Positions 34,206-51,989 of a DNA stretch of 64,000 bases are shown one piece after another. The DNA is taken from assembly GCF_003253705.1 (NCBI RefSeq), contig NZ_QKYU01000024.1:1-64000 (forward strand), in the 5' to 3' direction. The notes beneath the pieces were generated by a model, which saw only the letters and a program-made list of their open reading frames with translations, was not told the DNA's origin and ran no database searches. The stretch's first letter is position 1; each line of letters starts with the position of its first letter. The DNA comes from Humitalea rosea (lineage in GTDB: Bacteria; Pseudomonadota; Alphaproteobacteria; Acetobacterales; Acetobacteraceae). A program made the translations under genes and the position numbers.

Positions 34206-34237
34206 AGAATAGGCAGGACAATGCGTGCTGGATCCCG

Positions 34238-34944: not shown

Positions 34945-36290
34945 AGCGCAAGCCAGCCGCCGACGCCGCCATGCCGGCCACGGTGAGGAAGATCCGCGCC
35001 GCGGTGTACACGCGCAAGTCGAGCGAGGAAGGGCTCGACATGGAGTTCAACTCGCTGGATGCGCAGCGCGAGGCTTGTGAGGCCTACATCACCAGCCAGC
35101 GGTCGGAGGGATGGGTGCTCATCCGCGATCGCTACGACGATGGCGGCGTGTCCGGCGGCACGCTGGAACGACCTTCACTGCGGCGCCTCCTGGCCGACAT
35201 TGAGCGCGGGCTGATCGATGTGGTGGTGGTCTACAAGATCGACCGGCTGTCACGCGCGCTGATGGACTTCGCCAAGCTGGTGGAGGTGTTCGACGCGAAC
35301 AGCGTGACCTTCGTCTCCGTCACGCAGTCGTTCAACACGACCACCAGCATGGGTCGGCTGACGCTGAACATCCTCCTCAGCTTCGCGCAGTTCGAACGGG
35401 AGGTCATCGGCGAGCGCATCCGCGACAAGGTGGCGGCGTCACGGGCGCGCGGAATCTGGATGGGGGGCTTCGTGCCACTCGGCTACGACGCCAAGGACCG
35501 CAAGCTGCTGGTGAACGAGGCGGAGGCGGCACTGGTGCGCCGGATCTTCGAAGGCTTCGTCGAGACGGAATCCGGTACGAAGCTGGTCACCATGCTCCGG
35601 GCCGAAGGCGCCACCACGAAGCGCGGCCGCGCCTTCACCAAGAGCGACGTGTATCGGGTGCTCAGCAACCGGACCTATCTCGGCGAGGCGATGCACAAAG
35701 GGAAGTCGCACCCGGGCGAGCACGCTGCCATCGTGCCCCAGGCGATGTGGGACGCGGCGCACGCCCTGCTGTCGATCAGCCCGAAGACACGCGCCAACCG
35801 CACGCGGTGCCAGACGCCTTCGCTGCTGCGCGGGCTGATCTTCGGCAGCGACGGGCGTGCGATGTCGCCCACCCATGCGCGGGGGCGCCGCGGGCAGCAG
35901 TACCGCTACTATGTCAGCCAGTCGGTGCTGAAGGGTAGCGCCGCGGACGGCCCGGCCATCGCGCGCATTTCCGCCGCCGAGATCGAGGGCGCGGTCATCG
36001 CGCAGGTCCGTGGGCTGCTGCGCCAGCCGGAGGTGGTGCTCGGGGCCTGGCGCGCGGCACGGGCCTCGGCGCCGGATATGACGGAGGGCGAAGCCCGGCT
36101 GGCGCTGGAGCGGCTGGACCCGCTTTGGGAGGAGCTCTTCCCCGCGGAGCAGGCGCGGATTATCCGCCTCCTGGTCGACCGGGTGGACATCGGGGTAGGC
36201 GGCGCTGACGTGCGGCTGAAGCTGGAGGGACTGGCCAGCCTGGCGCGCGACCTGGCCACGCCACCCGAATCCGCGAGGGCCGCAGCATGA
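34941..36290 (+). CDS. Large serine recombinase (putative prophage integrase)
   Basis: A 449-residue recombinase. The catalytic domain has AVYTRKSSEEGLDMEFNSLD with the active serine in RKSS, DGGVSGGTLERPSLRRLL, and VVYKIDRLSRALMDFAKLV; the long helix follows FAQFEREVIGERIRDK. A Recombinase domain (DVYRVLSNRTYLGEAMHKGK) comes next. The usual zinc ribbon is degenerate: LLRGLIFGSDGRAMSPTHAR lacks the expected Cys pair. It would integrate and excise the prophage, which ends close to here. The att sites are not visible. Confidence 0.88.
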   Translation: MKRKPAADAAMPATVRKIRAAVYTRKSSEEGLDMEFNSLDAQREACEAYITSQRSEGWVLIRDRYDDGGVSGGTLERPSLRRLLADIERGLIDVVVVYKIDRLSRALMDFAKLVEVFDANSVTFVSVTQSFNTTTSMGRLTLNILLSFAQFEREVIGERIRDKVAASRARGIWMGGFVPLGYDAKDRKLLVNEAEAALVRRIFEGFVETESGTKLVTMLRAEGATTKRGRAFTKSDVYRVLSNRTYLGEAMHKGKSHPGEHAAIVPQAMWDAAHALLSISPKTRANRTRCQTPSLLRGLIFGSDGRAMSPTHARGRRGQQYRYYVSQSVLKGSAADGPAIARISAAEIEGAVIAQVRGLLRQPEVVLGAWRAARASAPDMTEGEARLALERLDPLWEELFPAEQARIIRLLVDRVDIGVGGADVRLKLEGLASLARDLATPPESARAAA

Positions 36291-36685
36291 CCGGCGCCGC
36301 GCAGATGCTGACCGTTCGGGTGCCTCTGGCGGTCCGGAAGCCGCGGGGCGGGCGGAAGCTGATGATCGCGCCGGGCGGCACCACGAACCGGGGCCCCTCG
36401 GCTGCGGACACCACGCTGGTGAAGGCGCTGGCCCGGGCGTTCCGGTGGCGGCGAATGCTTGAAGCGGGGCGCTATGGCACGATCGACGAACTGGCGGCGG
36501 CGGAGAAGATCAATTCGTCCTACGTCTCCCGTCTGCTGCGCCTGACGCTGCTGGCGCCGAAGATCGTCGAGGCGATCTTGGATGGGCGGCAGCATCCAGG
36601 GATGACGCTGCCGGGGCTTATGGAGCGGCTAATGGCAGAGTGGACGGAGCAGCTTCAGGCATTCTCCGAAAAGCGAGTAGGCTGA
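36287..36685 (+). CDS. HTH protein of the recombinase cassette
   Basis: A 132-residue protein overlapping the recombinase stop by four bases. The middle (TTLVKALARAFRWRRMLEAG, then YGTIDELAAAEKINSSYVSR) ends in a helix-turn-helix, followed by LLRLTLLAPKIVEAILDGRQ. It belongs to the small family that follows large serine recombinases in alphaproteobacterial elements. A DNA-binding accessory role is likely. Confidence 0.72.
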   Translation: MTGAAQMLTVRVPLAVRKPRGGRKLMIAPGGTTNRGPSAADTTLVKALARAFRWRRMLEAGRYGTIDELAAAEKINSSYVSRLLRLTLLAPKIVEAILDGRQHPGMTLPGLMERLMAEWTEQLQAFSEKRVG

Positions 36686-37086: not shown

Positions 37087-38238
37087 TTGCCGAATCAAGG
37101 ACCTATATATTTCGACCATCAGGCGCATGCACCCATCGACCCTCGTGTCGCCGACCGTCTGGCCAGTGCCTTCCGGGAATACGACGCGAATCCCCACTCG
37201 GCCCACCAGCCGGGCGATATTGCACGGCGCGCTGTCGAGGAGGCGCGCCTCCAGGTGGGTGAGCTGATTGGCGCTGAGTCTGCAGAGATCCTCTTTACTT
37301 CAGGTGCTACCGAATCGAACAACCTTGCCATCGGCGGCCTGCGAGACTGGCTTGCCGCGTCTCACTTCCCCCGTGTGCTGGTCTCCGCCGGTGAGCACCC
37401 CTCGGTCATGGCCGCCGCCGCGGCTTTCTCCGCCAGTGTAGAGACGGTGCCCCTGCTTTCGTCCGGCGTCGTCGACCTGGGCCAGCTGGAGCGGATGCTG
37501 GGCGGAGCCGCAGGCCTTGTTTCGATAGCGGCGGCCAACCACGAGATCGGCACGATCCAGCCGATCGCCGAGATATCCCGAATCACCCGTTCTGCAGGGG
37601 CGCTTTTCCACTCCGACCTCGCCCAGGCCGCGGGAAAACTTCCTATCGACGCTGCACTACTCGATCTTGCCAGCATCTCATCGCACAAGATGTGCGGCCC
37701 AGTGGGCATCGGCGCGCTCTTCATCCGCCGCTCGCTCCGCCGGCACCTGCGGCCGATCCTTCATGGCGGGGGCCAAGAGGCGAACCTACGGCCCGGCACC
37801 CTTCCGGCGCCGCTCTGCGTCGCGTTCGGCGAGGCCTGCCGCTTCGCTCGCGACGAGATGGGAGGGGAGACAGATCGGGTCACGAGGCTCCGCGACGGGC
37901 TGCTTTTGCGGCTGACCGACCTCGGCGGCGTCTCAGTCAACGGCGGTCCCGCTCGTCTTCCCGGCAACATAAACATCTCGTTCGATGGCGTAGATGGCGA
38001 GGCACTCGTGCTCAGATTGCGCCCAAGCGTCGCCCTCTCCACCGGATCGGCCTGCACGTCCGCGTCGCTCGAGCCATCACACGTCCTCGCCGCCATCGGC
38101 GTGACTGGCGAGCGCGCGGAAGGGGCCGTGCGGATCAGCCTCGGGCGGTCAACCACGCCAGAGGAGGTACTGGCGGCCGGCGACGCCATAGCCGAGGCAG
38201 TCACGACGCTGCGCTCCACGCGCCGGAGGGTCGCGTGA
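37087..38238 (+). CDS. dndA: Cysteine desulfurase, DndA/IscS-like
   Basis: A PLP enzyme of about 383 residues that takes sulfur from cysteine and passes it on as persulfide. Motifs: GPIYFDHQAHAPIDPRVADR at the start, FTSGATESNNLAIGG, PLP-binding HSD (LFHSDLAQAAGK) and lysine (SISSHKMCGPVGIGA), and the catalytic loop STGSACTSASLEPSHVL. The TTG at 37087 has GGGAGG 8 bases upstream; a GTG at 37063 is the alternative. The dndC gene overlaps its stop by four bases, so this enzyme serves DNA phosphorothioation rather than general Fe-S assembly. Confidence 0.87.
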   Translation: MPNQGPIYFDHQAHAPIDPRVADRLASAFREYDANPHSAHQPGDIARRAVEEARLQVGELIGAESAEILFTSGATESNNLAIGGLRDWLAASHFPRVLVSAGEHPSVMAAAAAFSASVETVPLLSSGVVDLGQLERMLGGAAGLVSIAAANHEIGTIQPIAEISRITRSAGALFHSDLAQAAGKLPIDAALLDLASISSHKMCGPVGIGALFIRRSLRRHLRPILHGGGQEANLRPGTLPAPLCVAFGEACRFARDEMGGETDRVTRLRDGLLLRLTDLGGVSVNGGPARLPGNINISFDGVDGEALVLRLRPSVALSTGSACTSASLEPSHVLAAIGVTGERAEGAVRISLGRSTTPEEVLAAGDAIAEAVTTLRSTRRRVA

Positions 38239-39356
38239 CCACAAGCGCACTGCCCGCCACCGCCGAGGCGCCGCTCGACGAGCGGATCGCCGCAATCCTC
38301 GACGAGCTTCGGGACGAATACCGCCAGCCCCACGACTCGCCCTGGATCATCGGGTTCTCCGGCGGGAAGGACAGCACGCTCCTCGCACAATTGGTCTTTG
38401 AGATGCTACTCGCCCTGCCTCCGCGGCAGCGGGTAAGGCCTGTGCACGTTGTCGCGAATGACACGCTCGTCGAGTCCCCGGTGATCGCTCGGCACCTCGA
38501 CGCGGTGCTAGATCGCATCGCGCGTTCCATCGAGCCGCTGCGGCTACCTGTCACCGTCGCGCGCACGGTGCCCGACGTCGACCAGACCTTCTGGGTTAAT
38601 CTGATCGGACGCGGCTATCCGTCCCCCAGCCGAATGTTCCGTTGGTGCACTGACCGAATGAAGATCGCGCCCACGTCTCGCTATATCCGCGAGCAGGTCG
38701 ACGCCGCCGGACGTGTGATCATGCTGCTCGGTGTCCGGGCCGCGGAATCGGCACAGCGGGCCGTCAGCGTATTTCGTTACCAGAACGCGGGCGAGCGGCT
38801 GAACCCGCACAACACCCTCCATGGCTGCATGATATACAAACCAATCGTCGACCTAACCACCGAGGAGGTTTGGCAGGTTCTACTGCAGTCGGCGCCGCCA
38901 TGGGGCGGAAGTCATCGCGAGCTCGTCACCATCTACCGCAACGCCGCCGGGGGCGAGTGTCCGCTGGTGACCGATCGCGAGGAGGCCCCCTCCTGCGGGA
39001 CTAAGTCATCGCGCTTCGGATGCTGGACGTGCACTGTAGTGGAGAAGGACCGCAGCGCGGAGGCCTTCGTCGATGCCGGTCATGAGAACCTGGAGCCACT
39101 GCTCGCGCTACGCGACTGGTTGAAGGAAATCAGAGAGGACAACCGCCGGCGGTCACCGCGCCGACGCAATGGCCAGCTGAACTTCGTGGGGGAGGGGCGC
39201 CTCATCCCCGGCCCCTTCACCCTCGACGCGCGCCGCGAGATCCTCGTCCGATTGCTTGAGACGCAGGAGGAAGTCGGTTTCCAGCTCATCAGCCTCGAGG
39301 AAATCGAGGCGATCCATCGGCTTTGGGTCGCGGACTCAATAGGAACCGGCGCGTGA
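38235..39356 (+). CDS. dndC: DNA phosphorothioation sulfurtransferase DndC
   Basis: A 373-residue PAPS-reductase-fold protein. The ATP pyrophosphatase loop is IIGFSGGKDSTLLAQLVFE (about residues 37-55). The DndC signatures VVANDTLVESPVIA, GYPSPSRMFRWCTDRMKIAP and HGCMIYKPIVDLTTEEVWQV follow. Four cysteines for an iron-sulfur cluster are in GECPLV, PSCGTK and RFGCWTCTVV. DndC activates the DNA phosphate and inserts sulfur. The GTG start has GGAGGG close upstream and overlaps dndA; the stop overlaps the dndD-like gene (GTGA). Confidence 0.93.
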   Translation: MTTSALPATAEAPLDERIAAILDELRDEYRQPHDSPWIIGFSGGKDSTLLAQLVFEMLLALPPRQRVRPVHVVANDTLVESPVIARHLDAVLDRIARSIEPLRLPVTVARTVPDVDQTFWVNLIGRGYPSPSRMFRWCTDRMKIAPTSRYIREQVDAAGRVIMLLGVRAAESAQRAVSVFRYQNAGERLNPHNTLHGCMIYKPIVDLTTEEVWQVLLQSAPPWGGSHRELVTIYRNAAGGECPLVTDREEAPSCGTKSSRFGCWTCTVVEKDRSAEAFVDAGHENLEPLLALRDWLKEIREDNRRRSPRRRNGQLNFVGEGRLIPGPFTLDARREILVRLLETQEEVGFQLISLEEIEAIHRLWVADSIGTGA

Positions 39357-41599
39357 ACTACGTCCCCGAGCTAAGCCATTTCGCGGTCGAGACCCCGGGA
39401 AATCGAAAGATCGTTGCCACGCTGATGGCGATCCGCGCGGCGACGGGGGGCGCCGGAAATAGGCGTCCGCTGTTCTCGGCAATGGATAGCCTCCTGTCCG
39501 GTGCGGAGCAGCCCGAGAGAGAAAGTTCCGTCGTCGACCTTCCCTCCGCCGCAGGCGGTGAGGCCGTCCGGCTAACACGCCTACGGCTGCGGAACTGGAA
39601 GTCGTTCGAGCGGGCGGACCTGCTCCTTCCGGACGGTGGGAGGAGGCGTCCAATCGTGGTTGTCGGAGGTGCAAACGGGTTCGGGAAGAGCAGTATCCTT
39701 GAGGCCTTCGCTCTCGGGCTGTTCGGCCGGCGCGCGATCAGCGACGTCGGCTTCCTGATGCATGCGACCGGCGGCCGGTTCGGCCAGCGCCGCGGCTACC
39801 GGAAGCTTCTCGAGCGCACTCTTCACCGCTCGTCCAAGGCGTGCCTCGAGGGAATGTGCAGCGTCTTCATGGACTTCGACACCGCGGATGGCCCCGTCTC
39901 CCTCGAGCGAAAGTGGTACTTCGACGAGAAGGGCGAGCTCGTCGAGGACGAGGAGGAGCTCTTGGTCAGAGTCGGCGACGACCGGCACCTGCTCGTGACG
40001 CCCGGCGGCGTCCTTGCCCGCGACTGGTACCAGGAGGAAATTGAGCGCCGAATAATGCCTGCAAGCTTGGCGCCCTTCTTCGTATTCGACGGCGAGCAGG
40101 TCGAGCGATGGGCGGAGCGTCGGCTGTCCGACCAGGTGCGTTCCGCCGTTGCGCGGATGCTCGGCCTCGACGACCTGCGTGGGCTCGCGGATGATCTCCG
40201 CGCCTATGCTCGCGACCGTGAACGTGACTTTGTCGGCGACCGGACTGTCGACCTCACGGGAACGCAGGCTGAGCTGGACCAGCTTGATGCGGAAATAGCT
40301 GGGAACTCGGCACGCCTCGCCGGCATCGATGCCGTCCTAACGGATCGCCGCGCCGAGCGGGACGCTGCACTCGCCCGCATCTCATCGCTCTCGGCAGGGT
40401 CCCATGCCGATCTCCAAGCGTTCCTCGAGACCGAGCACAGGCTTACTTCCGAGCGTCAGCGCGTCGAGCGGGTCCTTGCGGACGTGATCGGCGAGCATGG
40501 TCCTCTACTCCTCGCAGGCCAGCGGCTGGCGGGACGCACGGCGGAGGCTATCGAGGCCGAGCTGGGGGCGGATCTGGCGGAACTCGAGCCGGATGTGGTG
40601 GACGCACTCTGGGCGCGATTCGTTTCAGTCGATCCGCCGCTGGCTGAGGACCAGATCGCGACGCTCAGGTGCCGCTTCGTGGAGGCACTTCGGCCGATGG
40701 AAGGCGTCCACTATAAAGATGCGCACCAGCACCTCGACAGACATGCGCGGCGCGTTGTGGCCGCGCGTCTCCGCGCCGCCTTCACGAATGGCCGGACGCA
40801 GGTTGAGGAGGCATCTGGATCGCTTAGGGGGGCCGTTCAGGGGCTCGCCGAAGCCCAGCAAGCGGCACTGGAGCAAGAACGGCGCTCGTCCGAGCGGGCA
40901 GACGCCCAGCGGGATCTTGCGCAGCTTAGCGCGGCCATCGAAGCCGCCGAGGGCGAGCGCGGTTCGCTCCGCGGTATCATCGAGGCGCTCAGGTCAAAAA
41001 TGGAGCCCTTGCGGGCAGAGGTGGTCCGCCAGGCGTTCCTTCTGCGCGAGGCCGAGCCCCGCATGCATGGCGCGGGCGTGGCGCGCTCCCTGGCCGCGTC
41101 GCTCGACGCGCAAATGGCCGCGATCGCCGACGTGGAGTACAGCCGGTTCGGCGAAGCGGTCACCCGGAGCTTCCGGGCCCTGGCGCACAAGAACCAAGTG
41201 TCGCGGATTAAGATCGGTCCAGACGGCACGGTCGCCATCTACGACCAAGCTGGGTCCGACGTGACCGACTACCGTCTTTCGGCCGGAGAGAGCCAGCTCT
41301 TCGCTATGGCGCTCATCGCTGCGGTGGGCAGCATAGTGGGCGACCGACTGCCGCTCGTTGTGGACACCCCGCTCAGCAGGCTGGACACGCGGCACCGCGA
41401 GAGCGTCCTGGCGATGCTAGGCGGACGGCGATCCCAGACCATCCTGCTGACGCAGCCGGAGGAGGTTGCCGCCCACCACCTGCAGCAGCTTGAGCCGGTC
41501 CTCGCGGGAGCCGTTCACCTCGTCCATTCGGTGGATCCAGGCACGGGCGTGGGTGTGAGCCGGTTCTCACCGGGTTACGATCCCGTCCTCGTACCTTAA
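39353..41599 (+). CDS. dndD: DndD-like SMC/ABC ATPase with N-terminal extension
   Basis: A 748-residue ATPase. After about 72 residues not seen in ordinary DndD (starting VNYVPELSHFAVETPGNRKI) the family start appears: VRLTRLRLRNWKSFERADLL. The P-loop is VVGGANGFGKSSILEAF, about 103-119. FFVFDGEQVERWAE, long coiled coils (about 310-590), signature LSAGESQLFAMAL and Walker B LPLVVDTPLSRLD follow. DndD is thought to hydrolyse ATP and possibly nick or bind DNA for sulfur insertion. The GTG at 39353 overlaps the dndC stop. The extension may replace a missing partner such as DndB; that is a guess. Confidence 0.82.
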   Translation: MNYVPELSHFAVETPGNRKIVATLMAIRAATGGAGNRRPLFSAMDSLLSGAEQPERESSVVDLPSAAGGEAVRLTRLRLRNWKSFERADLLLPDGGRRRPIVVVGGANGFGKSSILEAFALGLFGRRAISDVGFLMHATGGRFGQRRGYRKLLERTLHRSSKACLEGMCSVFMDFDTADGPVSLERKWYFDEKGELVEDEEELLVRVGDDRHLLVTPGGVLARDWYQEEIERRIMPASLAPFFVFDGEQVERWAERRLSDQVRSAVARMLGLDDLRGLADDLRAYARDRERDFVGDRTVDLTGTQAELDQLDAEIAGNSARLAGIDAVLTDRRAERDAALARISSLSAGSHADLQAFLETEHRLTSERQRVERVLADVIGEHGPLLLAGQRLAGRTAEAIEAELGADLAELEPDVVDALWARFVSVDPPLAEDQIATLRCRFVEALRPMEGVHYKDAHQHLDRHARRVVAARLRAAFTNGRTQVEEASGSLRGAVQGLAEAQQAALEQERRSSERADAQRDLAQLSAAIEAAEGERGSLRGIIEALRSKMEPLRAEVVRQAFLLREAEPRMHGAGVARSLAASLDAQMAAIADVEYSRFGEAVTRSFRALAHKNQVSRIKIGPDGTVAIYDQAGSDVTDYRLSAGESQLFAMALIAAVGSIVGDRLPLVVDTPLSRLDTRHRESVLAMLGGRRSQTILLTQPEEVAAHHLQQLEPVLAGAVHLVHSVDPGTGVGVSRFSPGYDPVLVP

Positions 41600-41680
41600 T
41601 CAAATCGATAAAAGCATGGTTGATGGCTTGATCAGACTTAATCTGGAAGCGCACTGTTCAGCGGCAAAGGGGAACATGGT

Positions 41681-42115
41681 ATGAATACGGCGGCCGCTGT
41701 GGCAGCACCGATCGGGATCTCCGACGTGGGAAGACTCGACTTCCGCACGTCGCGATCGGGGGAAACCGCGACAGCGTCCCTGCAGCGTGCACTTGGCCTC
41801 CAGTACAGATATCAGCCTGCCCGGCTCGCAATCGGCCGCTCGCTAGGTCTAGACACGCGGCCGGCACCCATCGCTAGTGTGGATGGCAAGGCCATAAGGG
41901 GTGAGACGCTGTTCGGGCAGGGTGCCGACGGGATCGGGCTCTGGATGAGCCTTATCGTGGAGCACGCAGGCCGTGGACCGCTGCCCCGGCGCGAGCTGCA
42001 GGAACTTGTCGCCGCGCACTGGGCACGGGGCGCCGGACTCCTTTGGGATAACCTACGCAGCTCGGCTAACGCGGCGGCCGACCTGGCGGCGCAGCTGTTG
42101 CGAACGCCCCGGTGA
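41681..42115 (+). CDS. dndE: DndE-like protein
   Basis: A 144-residue protein. DFRTSRSGETATASLQRALG, RYQPARLAIGRSLGLD, GETLFGQGADGIGLWMSLIV and LPRRELQELVAAHWARGAGL correspond in order to the DndE (DUF1832) layout: an N-terminal RTS helix pair, the conserved G-TLFG and a C-terminal H-RG helix. DndE binds DNA, probably nicked, in the modification complex. An 81-base gap separates it from the dndD-like gene; a GGGGA site precedes the ATG. The match is moderate and needs a profile search. Confidence 0.68.
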   Translation: MNTAAAVAAPIGISDVGRLDFRTSRSGETATASLQRALGLQYRYQPARLAIGRSLGLDTRPAPIASVDGKAIRGETLFGQGADGIGLWMSLIVEHAGRGPLPRRELQELVAAHWARGAGLLWDNLRSSANAAADLAAQLLRTPR

Positions 42116-42167
42116 GCCGTGAGACACCGCGCCCCTGTCAGCCGAGTCCAGTAGCTGGAGATCCGAT

Positions 42168-42386
42168 GTGGCGGTAAACCTTGCGACCGAGTACCGCGAC
42201 GTCGTGGAGGACGTAGCCCGCAAAACCGGGGTCTCAGCAGACCTGATTGTCGACCTCCTCAACCTTGAGCGCAGGCATCAGAACCTGCACGGCTGGGGCG
42301 CCCGGCCCGCCCTACGGAGGGACATCAGCGCGATTCTAGACCGGGCGCTCTCGGCCAGTCAGGCCGGGAAGGAAGCTGACCGGTGA
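42168..42386 (+). CDS. DNA modification system-associated small protein
   Basis: A 72-residue helical protein (VAVNLATEYRDVVEDVARKT, then GVSADLIVDLLNLERRHQNL and RRDISAILDRALS). The pattern VARKTGVSADLIVDLLNLE with HQNLHGWGAR resembles the small proteins that accompany DndD-like ATPases in some phosphorothioation loci. The GTG start has GGAG at about 8 bases. Its stop overlaps the second DndD-like gene (GTGA), so the two are co-translated and it is probably a subunit of that module. Confidence 0.62.
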   Translation: MAVNLATEYRDVVEDVARKTGVSADLIVDLLNLERRHQNLHGWGARPALRRDISAILDRALSASQAGKEADR

Positions 42387-44407
42387 GATTCACTAAGATC
42401 GAGCTCGAGAATATCTTCGCCTATGAGGGATTAGTGCCGTTCGATTTCCCCGAGGAGAACGGGGATCGTAACATCGTCCTCATTTGGGGGCGTAACGGGA
42501 TGGGTAAGACCAGCTTCCTGCGTGCCATCAAGCTCCTATTCGTAGGAATCCGTCCGGAGAAAAGCAGAACGGTCGGCTTTCCGCCAACAGTCTTGCCTGA
42601 GCGGCAGTTCGTGGCCGGCGACGGCGCCAGATGGTCCGGCCTCATCAACCGGCAGGCCGCGCGGCGAGCGGCGCGCGACGGCACCACGCCAACGGCCAGG
42701 GTCATGGCCTCGTGGACAACGGAAAACGGCCAATCCATCACTGTAGAGCGCCGCTGGATCCTGAAGCCTGGCAGCTTCGACGAGAATGCCGTCATATACG
42801 TTGGGGGCGAGCGTCTTACCGGAGACGTAGCAAAGGATCGTATCGGCGACCTTATGCCGTCGGAGTTTGTGGATTTTTTCTTCTTCGACGGCGAGGACAT
42901 AAAGGAGCTGGCCGAGAGTGAGGCTAGGCATCAGGCGGAGTTCGACCGGCTGCTTCGGATTACATTCATTACGGAGCTCGCTACCGAGCTAAAGGTGATC
43001 GGGTCGGAACGACGCCGGCGTGATATGGGCGAGAAGCTCCTGCACGACTACACGATCGTAGAGGCGGATCTCGTGAAGGCGAAGGGCGACAGCAAATCCG
43101 CCCAGCAATCCATCGCGGGGATCGAGGAGGCGCTCGCGCTCGACGCAGTGCAACTCCAGCGCCTCAACGTGCGCCGAGAGAACCTCAGCACTGGCGCATC
43201 AGAGGCGCAGCGCGCCGAACTGGAGGCGCGGCGCAAGCAGATCGGAGAGGACATCCAGGAAATCACAAGCCGGATCGCGAGCAAAGTTCCTCCGACAGCA
43301 CCTGTGGTCGCCAACTTGGCGCTAGTACGGGCTGCCCTGGCGGCCACGCAGCAGCGTGTGCAAAGCTTTAGTGCGGCAGAGGAGCGGTTTCTTGCCCGGA
43401 TCGCCGGTCGCATGCCAAGCTGGCTTGCTGAGGAGGCGGCTCTCGGGACGCAGGTTGCAGAGAACCTTGCCGAGCGGCTGCTCGACCGGATGAGGGGAGA
43501 ACTGCCACGCGGTGCAGGTGGCCCCTTCGCCTCGCTGGATCCTCTGAGGGCTGAGCGCCTACAGGCTATGCTTGCGCGCTGGGCCGCGGCCGGGAACGAT
43601 ATTCATCGGGCGCAGGCCAGCGAACTCGAGGCGCTTCGCCGGCTGCAGCGTGAGTTGCAGACCGCCGAGGAAGCGCTCATGCAGATTGAAGTCGGCTCCC
43701 AAGCCAACCTAGAACAGTACAAGGGCGTGGTCCGGGCGATTGCCGAAATCGAGGACCAGCAGAGTGAGCGCGCCGTTCGCAAGGGGCAGCAGCTCGAGAA
43801 GCGGAAGGATGCGGAAGCGCGGATTGCCGCGCTGCAGGCCAAGCTATCCGTCCTTTCCGAGTCGCAAGAGGCTGCCGCCCGTGAGCGGGACGAAGCCAAA
43901 TTCATCAGTAAGGTAGAGTTCGCGCTTAACGAGCTAGGCGAAGCGCTCCGCCGCTCGATCAGGGTGCGCCTCGAGGAGAGGCTCAACGCTCGTTTCCGCG
44001 AACTCGTCATGCATCCGCTGGTCGATAGGCTGACGATAGACGACGTTTACACCATGACCTACTTCGACGCACAGGGGCGTGAGGTTGGCCGGTCCAGCCT
44101 GTCGAGCGGCCTTAAGCAGCTTGCGGCCACTGCGCTCCTCTGGTCGCTCAAGGACGTTTCTGAACTCGACATGCCTGTGATCATCGACACGCCGCTGGGC
44201 CGGATCGACCGCGAGAACCAGGACAACATGCTGCATACATACTATCCGAGACTGGCCCGCCAAGTAATCATCCTGCCGACAAACTCCGAGATCGACAGGC
44301 GCCGGTTCGACCTCATCCGGGATCGGGTCGCCGAGCAGTTTAAAATTGTGAACGATAGCGGTGACAGTGCGCGCGCAGAGCGCGGTGGCACGCTGGTGCA
44401 GGCCTGA
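42383..44407 (+). CDS. Second DndD-like SMC/ABC ATPase
   Basis: A 674-residue ATPase of normal DndD build: start RFTKIELENIFAYEGLVPFD, P-loop LIWGRNGMGKTSFLRAIKL (about residues 34-52), FVDFFFFDGEDIKELAE, coiled coils about 210-530, signature SSLSSGLKQLAATALLWSL, and Walker B MPVIIDTPLGRIDREN. It is clearly not a copy of the first ATPase (39353) and lacks its N-terminal extension. It starts inside the small protein's stop codon and is followed after one base by the DndE-FtsK fusion gene, so these three genes look like one complex. It may act in restriction or modification. Confidence 0.82.
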   Translation: MRFTKIELENIFAYEGLVPFDFPEENGDRNIVLIWGRNGMGKTSFLRAIKLLFVGIRPEKSRTVGFPPTVLPERQFVAGDGARWSGLINRQAARRAARDGTTPTARVMASWTTENGQSITVERRWILKPGSFDENAVIYVGGERLTGDVAKDRIGDLMPSEFVDFFFFDGEDIKELAESEARHQAEFDRLLRITFITELATELKVIGSERRRRDMGEKLLHDYTIVEADLVKAKGDSKSAQQSIAGIEEALALDAVQLQRLNVRRENLSTGASEAQRAELEARRKQIGEDIQEITSRIASKVPPTAPVVANLALVRAALAATQQRVQSFSAAEERFLARIAGRMPSWLAEEAALGTQVAENLAERLLDRMRGELPRGAGGPFASLDPLRAERLQAMLARWAAAGNDIHRAQASELEALRRLQRELQTAEEALMQIEVGSQANLEQYKGVVRAIAEIEDQQSERAVRKGQQLEKRKDAEARIAALQAKLSVLSESQEAAARERDEAKFISKVEFALNELGEALRRSIRVRLEERLNARFRELVMHPLVDRLTIDDVYTMTYFDAQGREVGRSSLSSGLKQLAATALLWSLKDVSELDMPVIIDTPLGRIDRENQDNMLHTYYPRLARQVIILPTNSEIDRRRFDLIRDRVAEQFKIVNDSGDSARAERGGTLVQA

Positions 44408-44408
44408 C

Positions 44409-45905
44409 ATGGTCGACCGTGTTTACCTCAGCGTCGAGGAGCGGGGCTTGCTCAACAAGATCCTCGCGGACGGTCTGGGGCAAAGGGGCCAAAGGGATCC
44501 CCAATGGTCGGCCGCTCGGATCGCACTGGCGCGATCGCTCCAGATCACCGAAGCACCGGACTTGAAACGCTTTGCTGAGCAGTCCGGCGTGACAGGCGGA
44601 TCAGAAATTCACGCTAGACAGCTCACTGGGGAGGGCGCCGAGCAGGACGAAGACTACACTGACGTCTACCGTGCCTTACTCTCCGTCTATACCGGAACTG
44701 ATCTTTTCGCGGACGAGGGCGAATTCCACCGACACCTCCAGGCCCATCTGCGGCGCGGCATCCGCGATATCACCGAAGAGTGGAAGGAGGACAGTTCCTT
44801 CGCGGATTACCTGTTGCGTGAATTGTTCTTCGACCGGGGAGAGGCCGCCACTGCAGGCGAGATGGCCCCCGAACTCGCGGAGCGCGTGTCGCGGATCCTA
44901 GGACAGATCGGAGTGGGAGCACGCGTGGTTGAGACGCGCGAGGGCCCGCGCATCAGTAGGTTCGAGCTGGAGCTGGCCGAGCTCGAGGATTTGGACCGGC
45001 TCCGGAAGGGGCTAGGCAAGATCGCCTTTGCCCTTGGTTGGGGCGAGAACGCTGTGACCTCGTCGCTTGCGCCGGGCGAACGTCGCGTCTACCTCTCCAT
45101 CCCGAGGCCGGCGGCCACGTGGCGGACCGTGGACTGGTCACAGGTGCGCGACGCACTCGGTAGCCCCGCCGCTAAGGCAATGGCCCTTCCCGGCTGCATG
45201 GGAACCGATGTTCTCGGAGCGCCGTTCGTGTTCGACCTTGCCGAGGCGCCTCACCTCTTCGTCGGCGGCACGACGGGAAGTGGCAAGAGCATGTGTCTCC
45301 ACGCGCTGCTGCTGTCGATGCTGACAGGTCCCACCCCGCCCGAGCTGCTCCTGATCGATCCCAAGGCTGTCGAGTTCAATGCTTACGCCGGCAACCGGAA
45401 CGTGCGCGGTGGCAAGCCGGTGACCAGCGCCGATGACGCGATGGGTGCGCTCGATGAGCTTGTGGCCGAGATGGGCGCGCGCCAGGAAGTGATGAGCGCG
45501 CTCGACGTCCGCAATATCGCCGAGGCTAATGCGCGCGGTGCTGGACTGCGCCGGATCGTCGCCGTCATAGATGAGCTGGGCGATCTCTTCATGACCAAGC
45601 GCGAGATCGAGGTCCCGCTGATCCGCCTGGCGCAGAAGGCGCGGTCCTCCGGCATCCACCTGGTCCTCGCCACGCAGCGGCCCGAGGCCGCGACCTTCCC
45701 GGGCCTCCTGCGGTCCAACGTGCCGAGCCGGATCGCGTTGACTGTCCAGAAGGCTTCCGAGTCCAGGATTATCCTGGACGAGGGGGGAGCGGAGTCATTG
45801 CTCATGCGTGGCGACATGCTGATCCGCTTGGCAGGACGTCCAACCGAGCGTGCGCACGGATGCCGCGTCACAACCCAGGACATCCAGGAGGCGCTTGCCC
45901 GATGA
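44409..45905 (+). CDS. DndE-like - FtsK/HerA DNA translocase fusion
   Basis: A 498-residue protein. Residues 1-135 follow the DndE layout: VYLSVEERGLLNKILADGLG, WSAARIALARSLQITEA, DVYRALLSVYTG, and FHRHLQAHLRRGIRDITEEW. The ARxALxRSL and H-x-RG helices parallel the standalone DndE at 41681. After a linker with SRILGQIGVGARVVETREGP, the FtsK motor begins: P-loop VGGTTGSGKSMCLHALLLS (about 285-303), LLIDPKAVEFNAY, Walker B RRIVAVIDELGDLF, and HLVLATQRPEAATFPGLL. There is no membrane segment and no gamma domain. It would pump DNA for the DndD-like partner. The ATPase gene at 45902 overlaps its stop. Confidence 0.8.
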   Translation: MVDRVYLSVEERGLLNKILADGLGQRGQRDPQWSAARIALARSLQITEAPDLKRFAEQSGVTGGSEIHARQLTGEGAEQDEDYTDVYRALLSVYTGTDLFADEGEFHRHLQAHLRRGIRDITEEWKEDSSFADYLLRELFFDRGEAATAGEMAPELAERVSRILGQIGVGARVVETREGPRISRFELELAELEDLDRLRKGLGKIAFALGWGENAVTSSLAPGERRVYLSIPRPAATWRTVDWSQVRDALGSPAAKAMALPGCMGTDVLGAPFVFDLAEAPHLFVGGTTGSGKSMCLHALLLSMLTGPTPPELLLIDPKAVEFNAYAGNRNVRGGKPVTSADDAMGALDELVAEMGARQEVMSALDVRNIAEANARGAGLRRIVAVIDELGDLFMTKREIEVPLIRLAQKARSSGIHLVLATQRPEAATFPGLLRSNVPSRIALTVQKASESRIILDEGGAESLLMRGDMLIRLAGRPTERAHGCRVTTQDIQEALAR

Positions 45906-47035
45906 CGAGCCTCTCGATCACGCAATGGCAGCCGCTCCATCTCTGGCTAGACGAGATCGGTCCGTTCCAACAAGGCGTCGAGCACTTCGAGCTGTTCGGA
46001 CTCGACCAATCTGGGAGCCGCGCACCTGCCAACATGTACATGCTGCTGGCGCCCAACGGAAAGGGGAAGACGACAGCACTGAACTCGATCTTCGGACTGT
46101 TTGGACTAATTAACGAGACACCCATTGGCCGCTTCACCGACCCGTTAGAGACCGGCCGGGCCCAGCTCGACATCCGCGCCACGTGGTCGATCGATGGCGT
46201 GGAGCGAACCGTACTTCTCTCGCTATGGACTGGCACGGAGACACCGATCCGAAGCTGGACTAAGGATCAAATCACTGAAGATGCAGAGGCGGAAGTCTGG
46301 GCAAGGCTTGGCCTGGGGCGCAACCCAACGGGAACCTTTCCTTTAGATGGCAGCAACGATCTTGGCGCCATACTTCTCCGCGCGATCCAGTTGGGATGGA
46401 ACGAGCAGCCGACGGCACTAGGGGGTGTCTCCCAAGATCTTCCAACTGTTCTGCTCTTCCCCGCGGATCGGACGATCGTTGCCCCAACTGACGAGCGCGT
46501 GGTTCGGCGCCCACAAAATTTCGGCTACCAACCGGCCCAGAGGTTCGGTTCCGATGGAGCGGATTGGGGCAACTCGATCGACAATTTACTAATATGGCTA
46601 GAGTGGATTGATGATGGCCGAATTGAAGAGCTGATCGAATTTCTCAATTTGAACCTCTTCCGCGACGAGAAGGCAAAATCCATCCGGCGCCCGATTCGAC
46701 GCGAACTCTTGACCTTCATTGAGACGTCTACCGGGAGCCACCCGCTTTCTGGGCTGAGCCAGGGCGAGCGGGCGCTACTACAATTCTACGTCCGTACCAT
46801 TTCTCATATGACCCGAAACACAATCATCCTTATCGACGAGCTAGAGAACCACCTCCATCCGCGCTGGATGCAGCGGATGGTTGCCGCCCTAAAGACGATG
46901 GTCCGTCAGCCGGGTCGCCACGTGACGACGATCTTCACCACACACAACATGGAACTGATGGGGACATTCCGGCACGACTGGCCGGAGGATGGGCTCAGCA
47001 AGGGTGGATACATGATCGAGCACGAGATGAATTGA
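45902..47035 (+). CDS. ABC-type (AAA_21/OLD-like) ATPase of a putative ATPase-TOPRIM pair
   Basis: A 377-residue ATPase. P-loop LLAPNGKGKTTALNSIFG at about 47-64, signature LSGLSQGERALLQFYVRT near 282-299, Walker B TIILIDELENHLHPRW near 307-322, and the H-loop TTIFTTHNMELM near 348. The inserted middle (about 90-270) is without long coiled coils, as in OLD and AriA-type proteins. It probably acts with the next gene product, whose start touches its stop. The start overlaps the DndE-FtsK gene, so it is coupled to the phosphorothioation genes. Confidence 0.78.
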   Translation: MTSLSITQWQPLHLWLDEIGPFQQGVEHFELFGLDQSGSRAPANMYMLLAPNGKGKTTALNSIFGLFGLINETPIGRFTDPLETGRAQLDIRATWSIDGVERTVLLSLWTGTETPIRSWTKDQITEDAEAEVWARLGLGRNPTGTFPLDGSNDLGAILLRAIQLGWNEQPTALGGVSQDLPTVLLFPADRTIVAPTDERVVRRPQNFGYQPAQRFGSDGADWGNSIDNLLIWLEWIDDGRIEELIEFLNLNLFRDEKAKSIRRPIRRELLTFIETSTGSHPLSGLSQGERALLQFYVRTISHMTRNTIILIDELENHLHPRWMQRMVAALKTMVRQPGRHVTTIFTTHNMELMGTFRHDWPEDGLSKGGYMIEHEMN

Positions 47036-47946
47036 TGCCTAGTTTATCAGCCATTGGCGACCCAGAGAGCGTGAAGTATCGGTACAGCAAACGAACCATC
47101 TTCCTGGTCGAGGGCTCTGGTGACAAGAACGCGTTTGAAGCGATAGTCGGCGCCGGCTACGAGGCTGATATCGAATTTCAAATCGCCTCCGCCGGTGCGG
47201 GTCAAGGCGGCTGCAAGGCCGTACGCGACCGTGTTACGGAGTTGCGCCCTGGGAACAAGCGAATTTTTGGCCTGCTCGATGGCGAGGTGGCCGCGTCGGT
47301 CGGCGCCACTCAGGCGCTGCTGTACTGCACTGAGACCATTTTCACTGTTCCAGCAACAGACGGCCTTATATTCCTCGGTGTCCACGAGCTTGAGAACGTT
47401 TACTTCGAGAACGCGGACGTGCCCGCGATCATCTCTAGTCTTCGCTCAGCGGCAAGTCTCCACCGTCACCCCCCCGCTCAAGTAGCGCAGAGCCTTGACA
47501 ACAACGTCAGCCGCTTCATTCGAGCCTCAGTGTACAAATACACGTCGGCGTATTTTCACAGCCGCGGCGAGATGCGTGGGATCCTCAACACCAAGATTTT
47601 TGGGCACGCTCCATCGGCGGAGGTCAGAAAAATCGTCGTGGCGGCCGTCACTTCGGGTGGAAAGATTGATTGGAAAACGTTCGTGGCGCAGCTGATCCAG
47701 ACGGGGCGTAGTGCCCGGGGCGCGTTACGAGGGGTTGCCTCTTCACCAACAGCCAGGCGCAGCTGGCTCCTTCGGATAGCAGATGGCAAGGAACTGCTGG
47801 CGAAGTTGAGGCAGCTGCACGGAAACCTCGGCGATGAAGTGGAGGGCGCGCTCCTTCGCGATGTATGCAAGGGGGGGTATCCGAACGCATTCCGGACGGC
47901 ATTGTTTCGTGTTGCTGACGTTACACCGAGCACCTTCGCCAGCTGA
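47035..47946 (+). CDS. TOPRIM/DUF4435-like nuclease candidate
   Basis: A 303-residue protein. The start SAIGDPESVKYRYSKRTIFL leads into VEGSGDKNAFEAI (about 25-37), an E...D TOPRIM-like opening. KRIFGLLDGEVAASVG and IFLGVHELENVYFE follow in the order seen in DUF4435/AriB proteins, where the acidic residues bind metal. The C-terminal half is helical and basic. In PARIS and OLD systems such a protein is the nuclease partner of the ATPase encoded just before. The start ATG at 47035 uses the last base of the preceding stop. Confidence 0.65.
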   Translation: MPSLSAIGDPESVKYRYSKRTIFLVEGSGDKNAFEAIVGAGYEADIEFQIASAGAGQGGCKAVRDRVTELRPGNKRIFGLLDGEVAASVGATQALLYCTETIFTVPATDGLIFLGVHELENVYFENADVPAIISSLRSAASLHRHPPAQVAQSLDNNVSRFIRASVYKYTSAYFHSRGEMRGILNTKIFGHAPSAEVRKIVVAAVTSGGKIDWKTFVAQLIQTGRSARGALRGVASSPTARRSWLLRIADGKELLAKLRQLHGNLGDEVEGALLRDVCKGGYPNAFRTALFRVADVTPSTFAS

Positions 47947-48067
47947 CCTGCTTCAAACTTGATGCATCGCGCTCCACGGGAGGGCATTCTCGGGGGCGAC
48001 ACGGATGAGATGCTTGCAGGCGCTCGCGCCAGCCCACCGCTCCTCTTGACCAGAACACTCGCTGGTG

Positions 48068-50116
48068 ATGTCGAGGAGGCCCCGGGCGGCCAAGTGTCGC
48101 GATATTGAGACAGCCCATGACAACGCCAAGTTCCGCCGGACCAATTTCGCTCCTGCCGCCATGACCGCTCCGGCACGCCAGTTGGGAAAGCGTGTTGGAA
48201 ATGCGCTGTATCTGCACGCGTCGGCACTCTGCGTGGCTGAACCGCATGTACGCGAGCGCATCGAGAAGGCCGACGCAGCCTCTGATCATCCACCCTGGAA
48301 TGTTGCCAAGGTGCAGGCCACGGCCGTCTCCCTCCTGCTGTACGAGTCCTTCGACGACGCCGCGTTCCCGGCTCTGCTTGCTGCCACCCGCGTCAATCTT
48401 GAGGATGGTCAGACCTCGAAGACCGATTACCGCAGCCGCGCAAATCCACCGATCCTTCACCGCAAGGAGACCTTACTCCAGCCCGATGACCCCCGCCGCC
48501 CTCCATTCGCGGCGATAACGCGACTGGCAGAGGAGCACAATCTTTTCAGCGAACCTCATCGCATTGGGACCCGGAAAGCATGGTTGGAGCGTGTCGAGGC
48601 TGCCGGGCTTGTAGTCCGAGGCCCGAAGCTTCGCCGACTGGAAACGTCACTCGTCGATGTAGTTCGTCACCGAACGGCCATCGCTCGCCGCGACTTGTCT
48701 CAGCCCGTTCAGTTACTCGTCAATCATCGAATCCTCACGGAGATCGACACTGTGCTCGACTACGGGTGCGGCCAGGGCGACGATGTAGCTGCACTGGCTG
48801 CGAATGGCTTCCAGGCGCATGGGTGGGATCCTCACTATGCGCCGGACGGCCTGCGGCGGCCGGCTGACGTGGTCAACCTTGGCTTCGTGCTGAACGTCAT
48901 CGAGGATCGGCATGAACGCGCTGAAACCCTCACTGCCGCTTATAGATTTGCGAGGCGGGCTCTTTGCGTCGCCGTGATGCCGATCGGCAAATATAGCTTC
49001 GGCGCCCTTCGGCCCCATGGAGATGGCTACCTTACTGCACGCGAGACCTTCCAGAAGTACTTCGCTCAGCAGGAGCTGCGTGACTTCATCGCCGAAACCG
49101 TCGGCGAAGCGCCGGTTGCGTTTGCCCCAGGTATCTTTGTCGTATTCCGGGATAAGGATCTGGAGCAGGAGGTCCTGTTCAGGCGTCAGATCCGCGATAT
49201 CACGAGGCACTCCGGCTGGCATGCCCCAGACCGCCCTCGCCGGGCGGTCAATGCCCGCCCTGATCTCGCCGAGCGAATCAGCGCCGAGTTGCAAATGCTT
49301 TGGGCAGCCATCATCGACCGTGGCCGCATCCTCGATATCGAGGAGATCCCCGATGCCCTCCGCGAGCGGCTACGGGCTGCCAACGTGTCGGCAGCGCGGG
49401 CCATTGACCTATGCCTCTCCGTTTCACTCAACCGTGCGGGGCTTGCCGCGGCCGCCGCAGCCCGCAAGGAAGACCTTCTGATTCACCTTGCTCTCACCTT
49501 GTTTCCTGGCGCACCACGCTACACGACCTTGCCGCGTCCGATGCAAAGAGATCTCCGCGCCTTTTTTGGCAGCCACGCCGTGGCGATCCAAGAGGCGAAT
49601 ACGCTGCTGTTCTCTGTCGGAAAGCCGGAGGTAGTGCGTCATGCAGTGAATGCCGCCGTTGAGGGCGGGCTGGGTGGCATGCGGGACGTCGGCACGTTCC
49701 GCTTCTATGCACCCGCCCTGAACCGTCTGGGCGCTGTGCTACGGGTGCTCGTGGGCTGCGCCGGCATTCTACGTGGAGGTACAGAAGGAGCGGATTTCAT
49801 CGACATTAAGCTGGATGGCCGGCGGTTTACCTTCCTTGCCTGCAAAGATGCAACAGCTCGCTTGCCCATCTGCTCCGAACGCACCCGCGTAGACCTTACT
49901 CGGCTTAGGGTTTCGGTCGACCAACCTGATGGCATGGTCTTGTATCTCATAGGGTGCTTCTTGCCACGAGACGCACCCGGGGCAGCCGATCAAATCGCTT
50001 TTGACCGCAAGCTTGTGGCGGCTGGAATCGCTGACGAGGAGGGGCGGGGACCACGCTATGCCGAGCTGAACGAAATACTGCGGCTGCGTCGAGCGAAGGC
50101 GGGACCAATCAGCTGA
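48068..50116 (+). CDS. DNA phosphorothioation-associated methyltransferase
   Basis: A protein of about 682 residues. The N-terminal half (LGKRVGNALYLHASALCV, NPPILHRKETLL, IGTRKAWLERVEAAGL) and the SAM domain (VVRHRTAIARRDLSQPV; VLDYGCGQGDDVAALAANGF; GWDPHYAPDGLRRPADVVNL; GFVLNVIEDRHERAETL) match the family of methyltransferases associated with phosphorothioation genes. It may act on DNA or on another component. It lies 121 bases after the TOPRIM-like gene. The ATG at 48068 has no clear ribosome-binding site; ATG at 48161 is possible and still keeps the family core. Confidence 0.83.
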   Translation: MSRRPRAAKCRDIETAHDNAKFRRTNFAPAAMTAPARQLGKRVGNALYLHASALCVAEPHVRERIEKADAASDHPPWNVAKVQATAVSLLLYESFDDAAFPALLAATRVNLEDGQTSKTDYRSRANPPILHRKETLLQPDDPRRPPFAAITRLAEEHNLFSEPHRIGTRKAWLERVEAAGLVVRGPKLRRLETSLVDVVRHRTAIARRDLSQPVQLLVNHRILTEIDTVLDYGCGQGDDVAALAANGFQAHGWDPHYAPDGLRRPADVVNLGFVLNVIEDRHERAETLTAAYRFARRALCVAVMPIGKYSFGALRPHGDGYLTARETFQKYFAQQELRDFIAETVGEAPVAFAPGIFVVFRDKDLEQEVLFRRQIRDITRHSGWHAPDRPRRAVNARPDLAERISAELQMLWAAIIDRGRILDIEEIPDALRERLRAANVSAARAIDLCLSVSLNRAGLAAAAAARKEDLLIHLALTLFPGAPRYTTLPRPMQRDLRAFFGSHAVAIQEANTLLFSVGKPEVVRHAVNAAVEGGLGGMRDVGTFRFYAPALNRLGAVLRVLVGCAGILRGGTEGADFIDIKLDGRRFTFLACKDATARLPICSERTRVDLTRLRVSVDQPDGMVLYLIGCFLPRDAPGAADQIAFDRKLVAAGIADEEGRGPRYAELNEILRLRRAKAGPIS

Positions 50117-51356: not shown

Positions 51357-51371
51357 GGCCGCCGCTTTTCG

Positions 51372-51860: not shown

Positions 51861-51989
51861 GGCGTTTCCTCTGCGCTTGGCGGACATCCGGATCGTCTCG
51901 CAGCCTGATGCATTGCTGCAAGAGCTTAGGGCTTGAACCTTAACGAGTTCCTTATATGTTCTCATCACGACATCGGGTTACCGTGACTC

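What the first reader, a model, noticed from the sequence alone, without database searches (positions are those of the whole stretch)
37087..45905. Phosphorothioation-type island with two DndD-like and two DndE-like components
A DndA-C-D-E set is followed, in tight coupling, by a small protein, a second DndD-like ATPase and a DndE-FtsK fusion. The duplicate logic suggests a modification module plus a reading or restriction module built from the same parts, different from Dnd-DndFGH(Dpt), Ssp and Pbe as I know them.
Basis: partly seen in the sequence, partly recalled or inferred. Interest (0 to 1): 0.88.

Follow-up and report, generated by a model that had tools for sequence, protein, structure and literature searches.

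The report
Two-module Dnd island with PARIS-like effector
This stretch of bacterial DNA encodes one gene set predicted to mark the cell's DNA with sulfur and a second, related set fused to a DNA motor and followed by two genes resembling a known cell-suicide defence; the motor fusion is already in print, while the suicide-like pair and the origin of the small protein were not found there.

Summary
In detail: dndA-C-D-E, a small protein (SP), a second DndD and a DndE-FtsK fusion lie in order. Two things were missed. First, the ORFs overlap on into an ABC ATPase and a Toprim nuclease-like gene (45902-47946). The latter folds like AriB of PARIS (VIA Z 14.0; next family, OLD Toprim, 6.8). The pair sits in 25 of 35 DndD2-DndE/FtsK loci and co-varies with them (Mantel r 0.905-0.958). 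Second, SP is DndC's C-terminal domain encoded separately: 16 of 16 short DndCs in such loci have a separate SP, while 0 of 16 in the 404-422 aa class do.

The DndE-FtsK fusion beside a DndD-like ATPase, and SP, are already published (PMC10853773), so the core is not new. In 20 of 35 loci the unit stands directly behind its own DndC with no second DndD, and in 14 of 15 such genomes tested it is the only DndD. The two-module island is best read as derived: the second module shed DndC's catalytic part, kept its tail, and joined a separate writer. The two DndDs belong to different clades.

Best reading: a phosphorothioate writer, a DNA-scanning translocase/reader, and a PARIS-like abortive effector. 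Architecture shown; function inferred.

The parts
37087..38238 (+). dndA-class cysteine desulfurase (start uncertain: GTG 37063 or TTG 37087)
   Evidence: TIGR03235 E=1.5e-94, below cut-off; PADLOC SspA/DndA
38235..39356 (+). dndC sulfurtransferase, 373 aa, lacking the C-terminal tail domain
   Evidence: TIGR03183 385.5 bits over cut-off, profile match ends at 364/447; no PF20306 match; 332 aa from PP-loop motif to end
39323..41599 (+). first DndD (DndD1), with about 80 aa before the ATPase; start uncertain
   Evidence: TIGR03185 E=3e-61, below cut-off; own clade with 7 other rows, support 100
41681..42115 (+). free-standing DndE
   Evidence: PF08870 31.2 bits, over GA
42168..42386 (+). small protein SP, 72 aa: C-terminal domain of DndC encoded on its own
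   Evidence: PF20306 49.8 bits; the same Pfam model and a session profile match C-termini of DndCs
42383..44407 (+). second DndD (DndD2) ABC ATPase
   Evidence: PADLOC PDLC02721 587 bits full length; groups with FtsK-linked DndDs
44409..45905 (+). DndE-FtsK fusion (ORF opens at 44361; ATG 44409 corresponds to the start annotated in L004/L007)
   Evidence: PF08870 over GA + PF01580; motor motifs identical in the two-row alignment A2
45902..47035 (+). ABC ATPase of the PtuA/AriA kind (candidate sensor)
   Evidence: AAA_21 55.8 bits over GA; AF2 pLDDT 92.7; VIA Z 22.4 to PtuA, 16.9 to AriA, 15.9 to Rad50/SMC heads
47032..47946 (+). AriB-like Toprim/DUF4435 protein (candidate nuclease effector); TTG 47032 or ATG 47035
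   Evidence: AF2 pLDDT 90.3; only AriB chains at Foldseek E<=0.001; VIA Z 14.0 and 12.5 to AriB; invariant E26, D82, E118, E120 in 26 rows
48065..50116 (+). Dnd-associated putative methyltransferase (accessory, not in all loci)
   Evidence: TIGR04096 424.8 bits over cut-off 150

Best explanation
It is a two-module phosphorothioate (PT) defence island of the FtsK type. DndA, DndC, DndD1 and free DndE put sulfur into the host's DNA (inferred from family). SP, DndD2 and DndE-FtsK form a second DNA-scanning ATPase/translocase complex. Its ancestors most likely worked directly with their own DndC; in this branch the catalytic DndC was lost and only its C-terminal domain remains, as SP (homology and length shown; the history read from trees). 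I infer that this complex moves along DNA, passes PT-marked DNA, and stalls or locks on unmarked DNA or when a phage blocks it. The AriA-like ABC ATPase senses that state, or a phage anti-restriction protein as AriA of PARIS does, and frees the AriB-like Toprim protein, which shuts the cell down by cutting nucleic acid, possibly tRNA as AriB does. Shown: genes, order, homologies, predicted fold of the effector, co-variation. Inferred: PT writing, PT reading, the docking role of SP, the trigger and the killing.
For: Gene content and coupling. Same nine genes in order on Mesorhizobium pM0123d. ATPase + AriB-like pair in 25 of 35 DndD2-DndE/FtsK loci. Searching 398 genomes with the AriB-like profile alone gave 11 genomes; they include the window and 3 genomes already in the set; of the other 7, 6 have DndD2-DndE/FtsK-ATPase directly upstream. 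Distance matrices of DndD2, DndE-FtsK, ATPase and AriB-like agree, r 0.905-0.958 over 25 loci, 0 of 2000 permutations as high. AriB fold; at E up to 0.1, DUF4435 matches 15 of 26 members (best 4.9e-8) and PADLOC AriB 17 of 26 (best 5.1e-12). SP = DndC tail: session profile, Pfam PF20306 over GA on 6 of 17 long DndCs tested, end of the DndC model matching 2 of 5 SPs, length classes. Two-module DndD2s form one clade of 11 nested among DndC-coupled ones. PbeBCD precedent. PARIS-like pairs beside another modification-based system, BREX, where deleting them left methylation unchanged (PMC12839542 and PMC9009780, passages).
Against: No PT chemistry, defence or interaction was tested. In one-module relatives the same trio stands with DndC, so it may be a writer. 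10 of 35 loci lack the pair, so it is not indispensable. The window AriB-like protein has no Pfam DUF4435 match; the six type I proteins have D-G-E where the other 20 of 26 have D-R-D; the Foldseek TM-score to AriB is only 0.42 with rmsd 10.8. The ATPase is nearer PtuA than AriA, and AriA is hardly above Rad50/SMC heads, so 'AriA-like' rests mainly on its partner. The Mantel test does not control for shared organism history. One of the 7 newly found pairs stands without detected Dnd genes. Trees are quick ones, midpoint-rooted, without bootstrap; with more rows support for the FtsK-linked side falls to 87, one FtsK-linked row (L077) leaves it, and three FtsK-linked rows fall in the DndD1 clade.
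Confidence: 0.5

Rival explanations
1. The SP-DndD2-DndE/FtsK module is a second writer. SP supplies in trans the tail that the short DndC lacks, so one DndC serves two scanning complexes that mark different sequences; the AriA/AriB-like pair is only a guard.
For: In 14 of 15 one-module genomes tested this unit is the only DndD and stands with the only DndC. Relatives on Aureimonas and Rhizobium phaseoli plasmids have a TusA-family sulfurtransferase gene right after the FtsK gene. Window DndC is tailless while SP is separate.
Against: In 11 rows of one clade the unit has no DndC directly before it, and it lives with two different kinds of writer. Two genomes, both MAGs and possibly incomplete, keep SP-DndD2-DndE/FtsK-ATPase-AriB-like with no DndC found at E<=1e-20; the SPs there rest on the session profile only, not on Pfam.
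Confidence: 0.22
2. The AriA/AriB-like pair is an independent PARIS-like system parked downstream; the Dnd part works without it, with FtsK driving interference in the manner of Pbe.
For: 10 of 35 loci lack the pair; one such pair stands without Dnd genes; Pbe acts without it.
Against: Fixed position and overlapping ORFs, 25 of 35 loci, 6 of 7 newly found pairs in the same place, congruent distances.
Confidence: 0.15
3. The second module is a DNA-segregation or transfer-control device of plasmids and islands that borrowed Dnd parts, not a phage defence.
For: FtsK motor; five relatives lie on plasmids of 35 to 949 kb; a serine recombinase and a tRNA-Ser gene flank the window island.
Against: AriB-fold effector and TIGR04096 neighbour belong to defence contexts; some copies lie on contigs over 1 Mb (L025, L030, L047), though whether those are chromosomes was not checked.
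Confidence: 0.08

Closest known systems
FtsK-bearing subset of Dnd loci (HerA/FtsK clade 3 of Rakesh, Aravind and Krishnan 2024, PMC10853773; they credit their earlier ABC ATPase paper, which was not held)
   Same: DndE fused to HerA/FtsK next to a DndD-related ATPase in Dnd loci, and a small protein SP in related loci.
   Different: Main text has no DUF4435, PARIS, AriA or RloB; it has SP as one of the genes that independently associated with the ATPase-DndE cores; no one-module versus two-module history in the sections read.
DndCDEA-PbeABCD of haloarchaea (PMC6459918)
   Same: A DndC/D/E/A writer followed by SP, a second ABC ATPase and a second DndE.
   Different: Pbe has PbeA (HKD nuclease plus SF2 helicase) and a CxC-type ATPase; the window has neither, but has the FtsK fusion and an AriA/AriB-like pair.
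PARIS (AriA/AriB)
   Same: ABC ATPase plus Toprim/DUF4435 protein; AriB fold with VIA Z 14.0.
   Different: Part of a nine-gene Dnd operon; ATPase nearer PtuA by Z; trigger and substrate unknown.
DndFGH (Dpt) restriction
   Same: DndH also carries a captured HerA/FtsK motor (PMC10853773).
   Different: TIGR03237 (DptH) and TIGR03238 (recalled as DptF) found in 0 of 26 genomes searched; both found in a positive control.
StySA-type BREX with ATPase + DUF4435 genes (PMC9009780, passages)
   Same: PARIS-like pair inside a DNA-modification defence operon.
   Different: Methylation-based BREX genes, not Dnd.

Membership tests
Dnd phosphorothioate writer | DndC sulfurtransferase | tested here: met
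   TIGR03183 385.5 bits over cut-off 290.4
Dnd phosphorothioate writer | DndD plus DndE pair | tested here: met
   PF08870 over GA; TIGR03185 E=3e-61 though below its cut-off
Dnd phosphorothioate writer | PT in genomic DNA | not testable with these tools
   needs mass spectrometry
FtsK-bearing Dnd (Rakesh 2024) | DndE and FtsK motor in one polypeptide beside a DndD-related ATPase | tested here: met
FtsK-bearing Dnd (Rakesh 2024) | HerA/FtsK domain belongs to their clade 3 | not tested
   their tree data were not held
PbeABCD | PbeA: HKD nuclease plus SF2 helicase | tested here: not met
   no such Pfam match among the ten proteins scanned, 37087-50116
PbeABCD | CxC motif in the second ATPase | tested here: not met
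   no C-x-C in DndD1 or DndD2 of the window; the Halorubrum CxC-system ATPase has one
PbeABCD | SP + second ABC ATPase + second DndE after a DndCDEA writer | tested here: met
   but the window SP matches PF20306, the Halorubrum SP PF20304
PARIS | AriB fold / DUF4435 | tested here: met
   VIA Z 14.0, rmsd 4.9, 244 aligned; DUF4435 in 15 of 26 members at E up to 0.1, not in the window's own
PARIS | AriA ATPase | tested here: inconclusive
   Z 16.9 to AriA, 22.4 to PtuA, 15.9 to Rad50/SMC; AAA_21 over GA
PARIS | self-contained two-gene cassette | tested here: not met
   embedded in a Dnd operon, overlapping ORFs
PARIS | triggered by anti-restriction protein, cleaves tRNA | not testable with these tools
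   -
DndFGH (Dpt) | DptF and DptH genes | tested here: not met
   0 of 26 genomes including G000; both models rang on the Aliivibrio plasmid record

The most novel reading that the evidence does not exclude
A DNA-modification enzyme was turned into a sensor by losing its catalytic part. SP of two-module PT systems (possibly PbeB too) is the surviving docking domain of DndC; the catalysis-free DndD-DndE/FtsK complex reads what another writer wrote and reports to a dedicated PARIS-type effector. That would be a new route by which restriction modules arise from modification modules.
Probability: 0.35. Interest if true: 0.78.

Novelty: new variant of a known kind. Interest (0 to 1): 0.6.

Why it matters
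How PT marks are read, and what cuts or kills in Dnd loci without DndFGH or SspE, is open. This locus names a concrete candidate effector, with an AriB-like predicted fold and conserved acidic residues, tied to FtsK-type Dnd operons. It also gives SP, so far described as a mostly disordered regulator, a testable identity: the detached tail of DndC. Together they suggest how a writer complex can become a reader.

Tried and rejected
Close relatives of DndD2 and DndE-FtsK in viral contigs: none confirmed. Local duplication of DndD/DndE: rejected by the trees. Classing DndD2 as CxC-type from PADLOC's PbeC label: rejected, no C-x-C. Type III DndC as parent of the window DndC: not supported, separate groups. 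Direct repeats marking island ends at tRNA-Ser: none of the four repeat families found in 22000-51500 involves the tRNA. AriB-like profile against PDB sequences: no match at E<=1; only fold comparison showed it. An early working label 'PbeB-like' for small ORFs in L036-L068 is withdrawn: those ATPases have no C-x-C and no DndC nearby, and were not followed up.

Rows dropped or labelled by hand: L001-L003 and L006 (the window's own genome), L004 (same plasmid as L007) and L005 (broken reading frames) before the counts; L009-L011 and L016, L017, L019 are close kin, so 35 loci are fewer than 35 independent cases. One odd row (L070) was left out of tree 61; four rows (L010, L018, L028, L047) were labelled FtsK-linked by hand, L028 without its FtsK gene being on the contig. 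In tree 95, 18 of 24 DndC-less and 9 of 14 canonical rows were left out to save time. In one search L010 and L047 fell out by a spacing rule; L021's SP lies in an ORF over the 200-aa limit, L107's DndC piece scored under the limit, and L077 and L108 are cut by contig ends. In one search at most 30 candidates per genome were scored.

Literature: one search was faulty (whole-word match of a word stem) and was repeated properly.
Full report
What is there. The ORFs then overlap into an ABC ATPase (45902-47035) and a 304-aa protein (47032-47946), followed by a TIGR04096 Dnd-associated methyltransferase (48065-50116). SP matches Pfam Sp-DndD (PF20306, 49.8 bits), and both DndE domains pass Pfam's gathering score.

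Relatives. Mesorhizobium amorphae plasmid pM0123d has the same nine genes in the same order; Rhizobium sp. RCAM05350 has a copy with broken reading frames plus the methyltransferase. One capped scan of 84,980 genomes with a two-row DndD2 alignment kept 80 loci of 324 relatives; with the window, 35 loci carry DndD and DndE-FtsK. Type I is dndA-C-D1-E1-SP-D2-DndE/FtsK-ATPase-AriB-like: the window, L007, L008, L009, L010 and L011. Type II has the same second module facing a writer on the other strand (L012, L013, L014, L023, L038). Type III has dndC directly before DndD2-DndE/FtsK and no DndD1/DndE1 (20 of 35). L027 is a separate two-module case; L021 and L083 have no DndC at the locus, and L077 is at a contig end. 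A sample of the window's class gave 1 of 385 genomes with DndD2 at E<=1e-60, the window's own, so the unit is rare.

The effector candidate. The ATPase and AriB-like genes are in 25 of the 35 loci; L022, L024, L056, L077 and six Helicobacter loci lack them. In an alignment of 26 AriB-like proteins the invariant residues are E26, D30, G59, G79, D82, E118, E120 and K252, which reads as a Toprim-type acidic set (motif recalled). The six type I proteins have D-G-E at D82, the other 20 have D-R-D. At E up to 0.1, DUF4435 matches 15 of 26 members and PADLOC AriB 17 of 26. The window protein itself matches only PADLOC AriB, at E=4e-4, and no Pfam family. Its AlphaFold2 model (pLDDT 90.3) has two Foldseek matches at E<=0.001, both AriB of PARIS (TM 0.41-0.42). 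VIA-align gives Z 14.0 (rmsd 4.9, 244 aligned) and 12.5 for these, and 6.8 for the next row, an OLD Toprim domain. The ATPase model (pLDDT 92.7) is closest to PtuA (Z 22.4); AriA follows at 16.9, hardly above Rad50/SMC heads at 15.9. So it is a defence-type ABC ATPase rather than a clear AriA.

Is the pair really part of the system? Searching 398 genomes of the phylum with the AriB-like profile alone gave 11 genomes. Apart from the window, three contigs match those of L020, L021 and L026 in length, so they are not independent. Of the remaining seven, six have DndD2-DndE/FtsK-ATPase directly upstream, two of them at contig ends, and one (L113) has no Dnd gene detected nearby. Pairwise distances of DndD2, DndE-FtsK, ATPase and AriB-like over 25 loci correlate at 0.905-0.958, with 0 of 2000 permutations as high. 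This shows joint inheritance but does not separate it from shared organism history.

What SP is. A profile of 17 SPs searched against 15,375 ORFs hits, below E=1e-6, only SPs (including those it was built from) and the C-termini of nine long DndCs: L015, L017, L020, L022, L024, L026, L028, L056 and L067. Pfam's own SP model independently matches the C-terminus of DndC. Of 17 long DndCs tested, 6 score over the gathering cut-off (L027, L056, L080, L082, L087, L092), 4 below it (L015, L017, L022, L067) and 7 not at all (L013, L020, L024, L026, L089, L090, L091). The end of the DndC model TIGR03183 (positions 383-445 of 447) matches 2 of 5 SPs tested, weakly (E 0.005 and 0.003).

Lengths tell the same (41 loci with FtsK-linked DndD). 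Measured from the PP-loop motif, 13 DndCs are 331-343 aa long, and three more (L016, L019, L110) are short ORFs; all 16 loci have a separate SP (15 by profile, two of these weakly; L118 by RefSeq annotation). Sixteen DndCs are 404-422 aa long and none of the 16 loci has a separate SP; the tail is recognised by profile in 10 of the 16, not in the six Helicobacter ones. Four DndCs of 457-461 aa belong to separate canonical-type writers (L013, L014, L027, L038); three of those loci do have a separate SP, beside DndD2 (L013, L014, L038). In L016 and L019 an in-frame stop separates what is one ORF in the close relative L017. I conclude that SP is the DndC tail domain as a separate protein.

History. 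In a tree of 91 DndD proteins the 37 FtsK-linked rows group together with one long-branch row, L048 (support 99), and the 11 two-module DndD2s of types I and II form one clade (99) inside them, among DndC-coupled ones; DndD1 of type I, L012 and L023 is a different clade of 8 (100). DndC behaves likewise: the 21 type III DndCs group together (support only 50; 98 with L048), the window's DndC lies in a separate clade of 8 (99), and L013, L014 and L038 carry canonical DndCs. With 16 more DndDs the clade of 11 stays (99), but support for the FtsK-linked side falls to 87, L077 leaves it, a long-branch CxC ATPase joins it, and three FtsK-linked rows (L088, L117, L118) fall in the DndD1 clade. So FtsK is joined to two DndD lineages. 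Genome-wide, of 15 type III genomes tested (of 21 such loci), 15 have one DndC and 14 one DndD; the genomes of L021 and L083, both MAGs, have no DndC at E<=1e-20 but keep the rest. 0 of 26 genomes have TIGR03237 (DptH) or TIGR03238, and both models rang on a positive record. The second lineage is C-SP-D-FtsK, with TusA following in Aureimonas and R. phaseoli; its DndE domain is weak (L117 below GA, L088 no match). In L119 (over GA) and L120 (just below) DndE is fused to a HerA-type motor instead. I read this as follows: the second module of the window began as a whole Dnd module, lost its catalytic DndC, kept the tail as SP, and now lives with a separate writer.

Mechanism. For the nearest tested system, PbeABCD, deletion of pbeB, pbeC or pbeD (SP, ABC ATPase, DndE) abolishes protection, PT-marked virus escapes, and no cleavage of viral DNA was seen (PMC6459918, passages). 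PARIS is triggered by the phage anti-restriction protein Ocr (PMC9122126, passages); AriA recognises Ocr and releases AriB, which degrades host tRNA-Lys (PMC12707154, passages). PARIS-like pairs are also recruited to BREX (PMC12839542, passages), where deleting them left methylation unchanged (PMC9009780, passages). I therefore infer writer, scanner/reader and abortive effector. The main rival is that the second module also writes.

What is known. PMC10853773 (abstract, sections 12, 14, 16, 17, 22, 24 and passages read) reports HerA/FtsK fused to DndE beside a DndD-related ATPase in a subset of Dnd loci, and SP as a small, mostly disordered protein. Its main text has no DUF4435, PARIS, AriA or RloB; Toprim and OLD occur only in another setting or in a reference. 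Paper searches for DUF4435 with phosphorothioate, AriB with PARIS and phosphorothioate, DndE with FtsK and PbeB with DndC gave nothing, in what I read of them, that describes the AriA/AriB-like pair in Dnd loci or SP as the DndC tail. Only open-licence papers are held, supplements were not available, and several listed papers were not opened.

Verdict. A real, rare, already-noticed Dnd arrangement, extended here by a recurring PARIS-like effector pair and by the identity and likely origin of SP. New variant of a known kind.

Noticed in passing
window 32429-36685: IrrE-like peptidase (weak, below GA), an ORF that reads like an XRE-type regulator (by eye), and a large serine recombinase upstream of the island; tRNA-Ser at 50420-50509 downstream: the island looks mobile, but no flanking repeat was found.
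   Followed up: partly
window 51341-51968: ORF built of about 20-residue repeats (60-nt units) just past the island.
   Followed up: no
L117 11581-11817; L118 11641-11844: A TusA-family sulfurtransferase gene directly follows the FtsK gene in one-module loci, suggesting a sulfur-relay partner.
   Followed up: no
L119 10025-11629; L120 5088-6788 (-): DndE fused to a HerA-type motor instead of FtsK.
   Followed up: partly
L036-L068, e.g. L057 9100-9366 and 9992-11989: A 24-row DndD clade with no DndC nearby and no CxC motif; in many loci of this kind a small SP-like ORF lies upstream (PF20306 over GA in the five tested).
   Followed up: no
L113 8775-10865: An ATPase + AriB-like pair of this subfamily without Dnd genes nearby, preceded by an ORF that looks like an FHA domain (by eye).
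   Followed up: partly
L029 8844-9743: A Helicobacter one-module FtsK-type Dnd locus without the pair is followed by what looks like a DNA methyltransferase (by eye).
   Followed up: no
window 47278-47286 (D82-E84 of the AriB-like protein) and L007-L011: The D-G-E variant of the Toprim motif is confined to the six type I loci; the other 20 of 26 have D-R-D.
   Followed up: no
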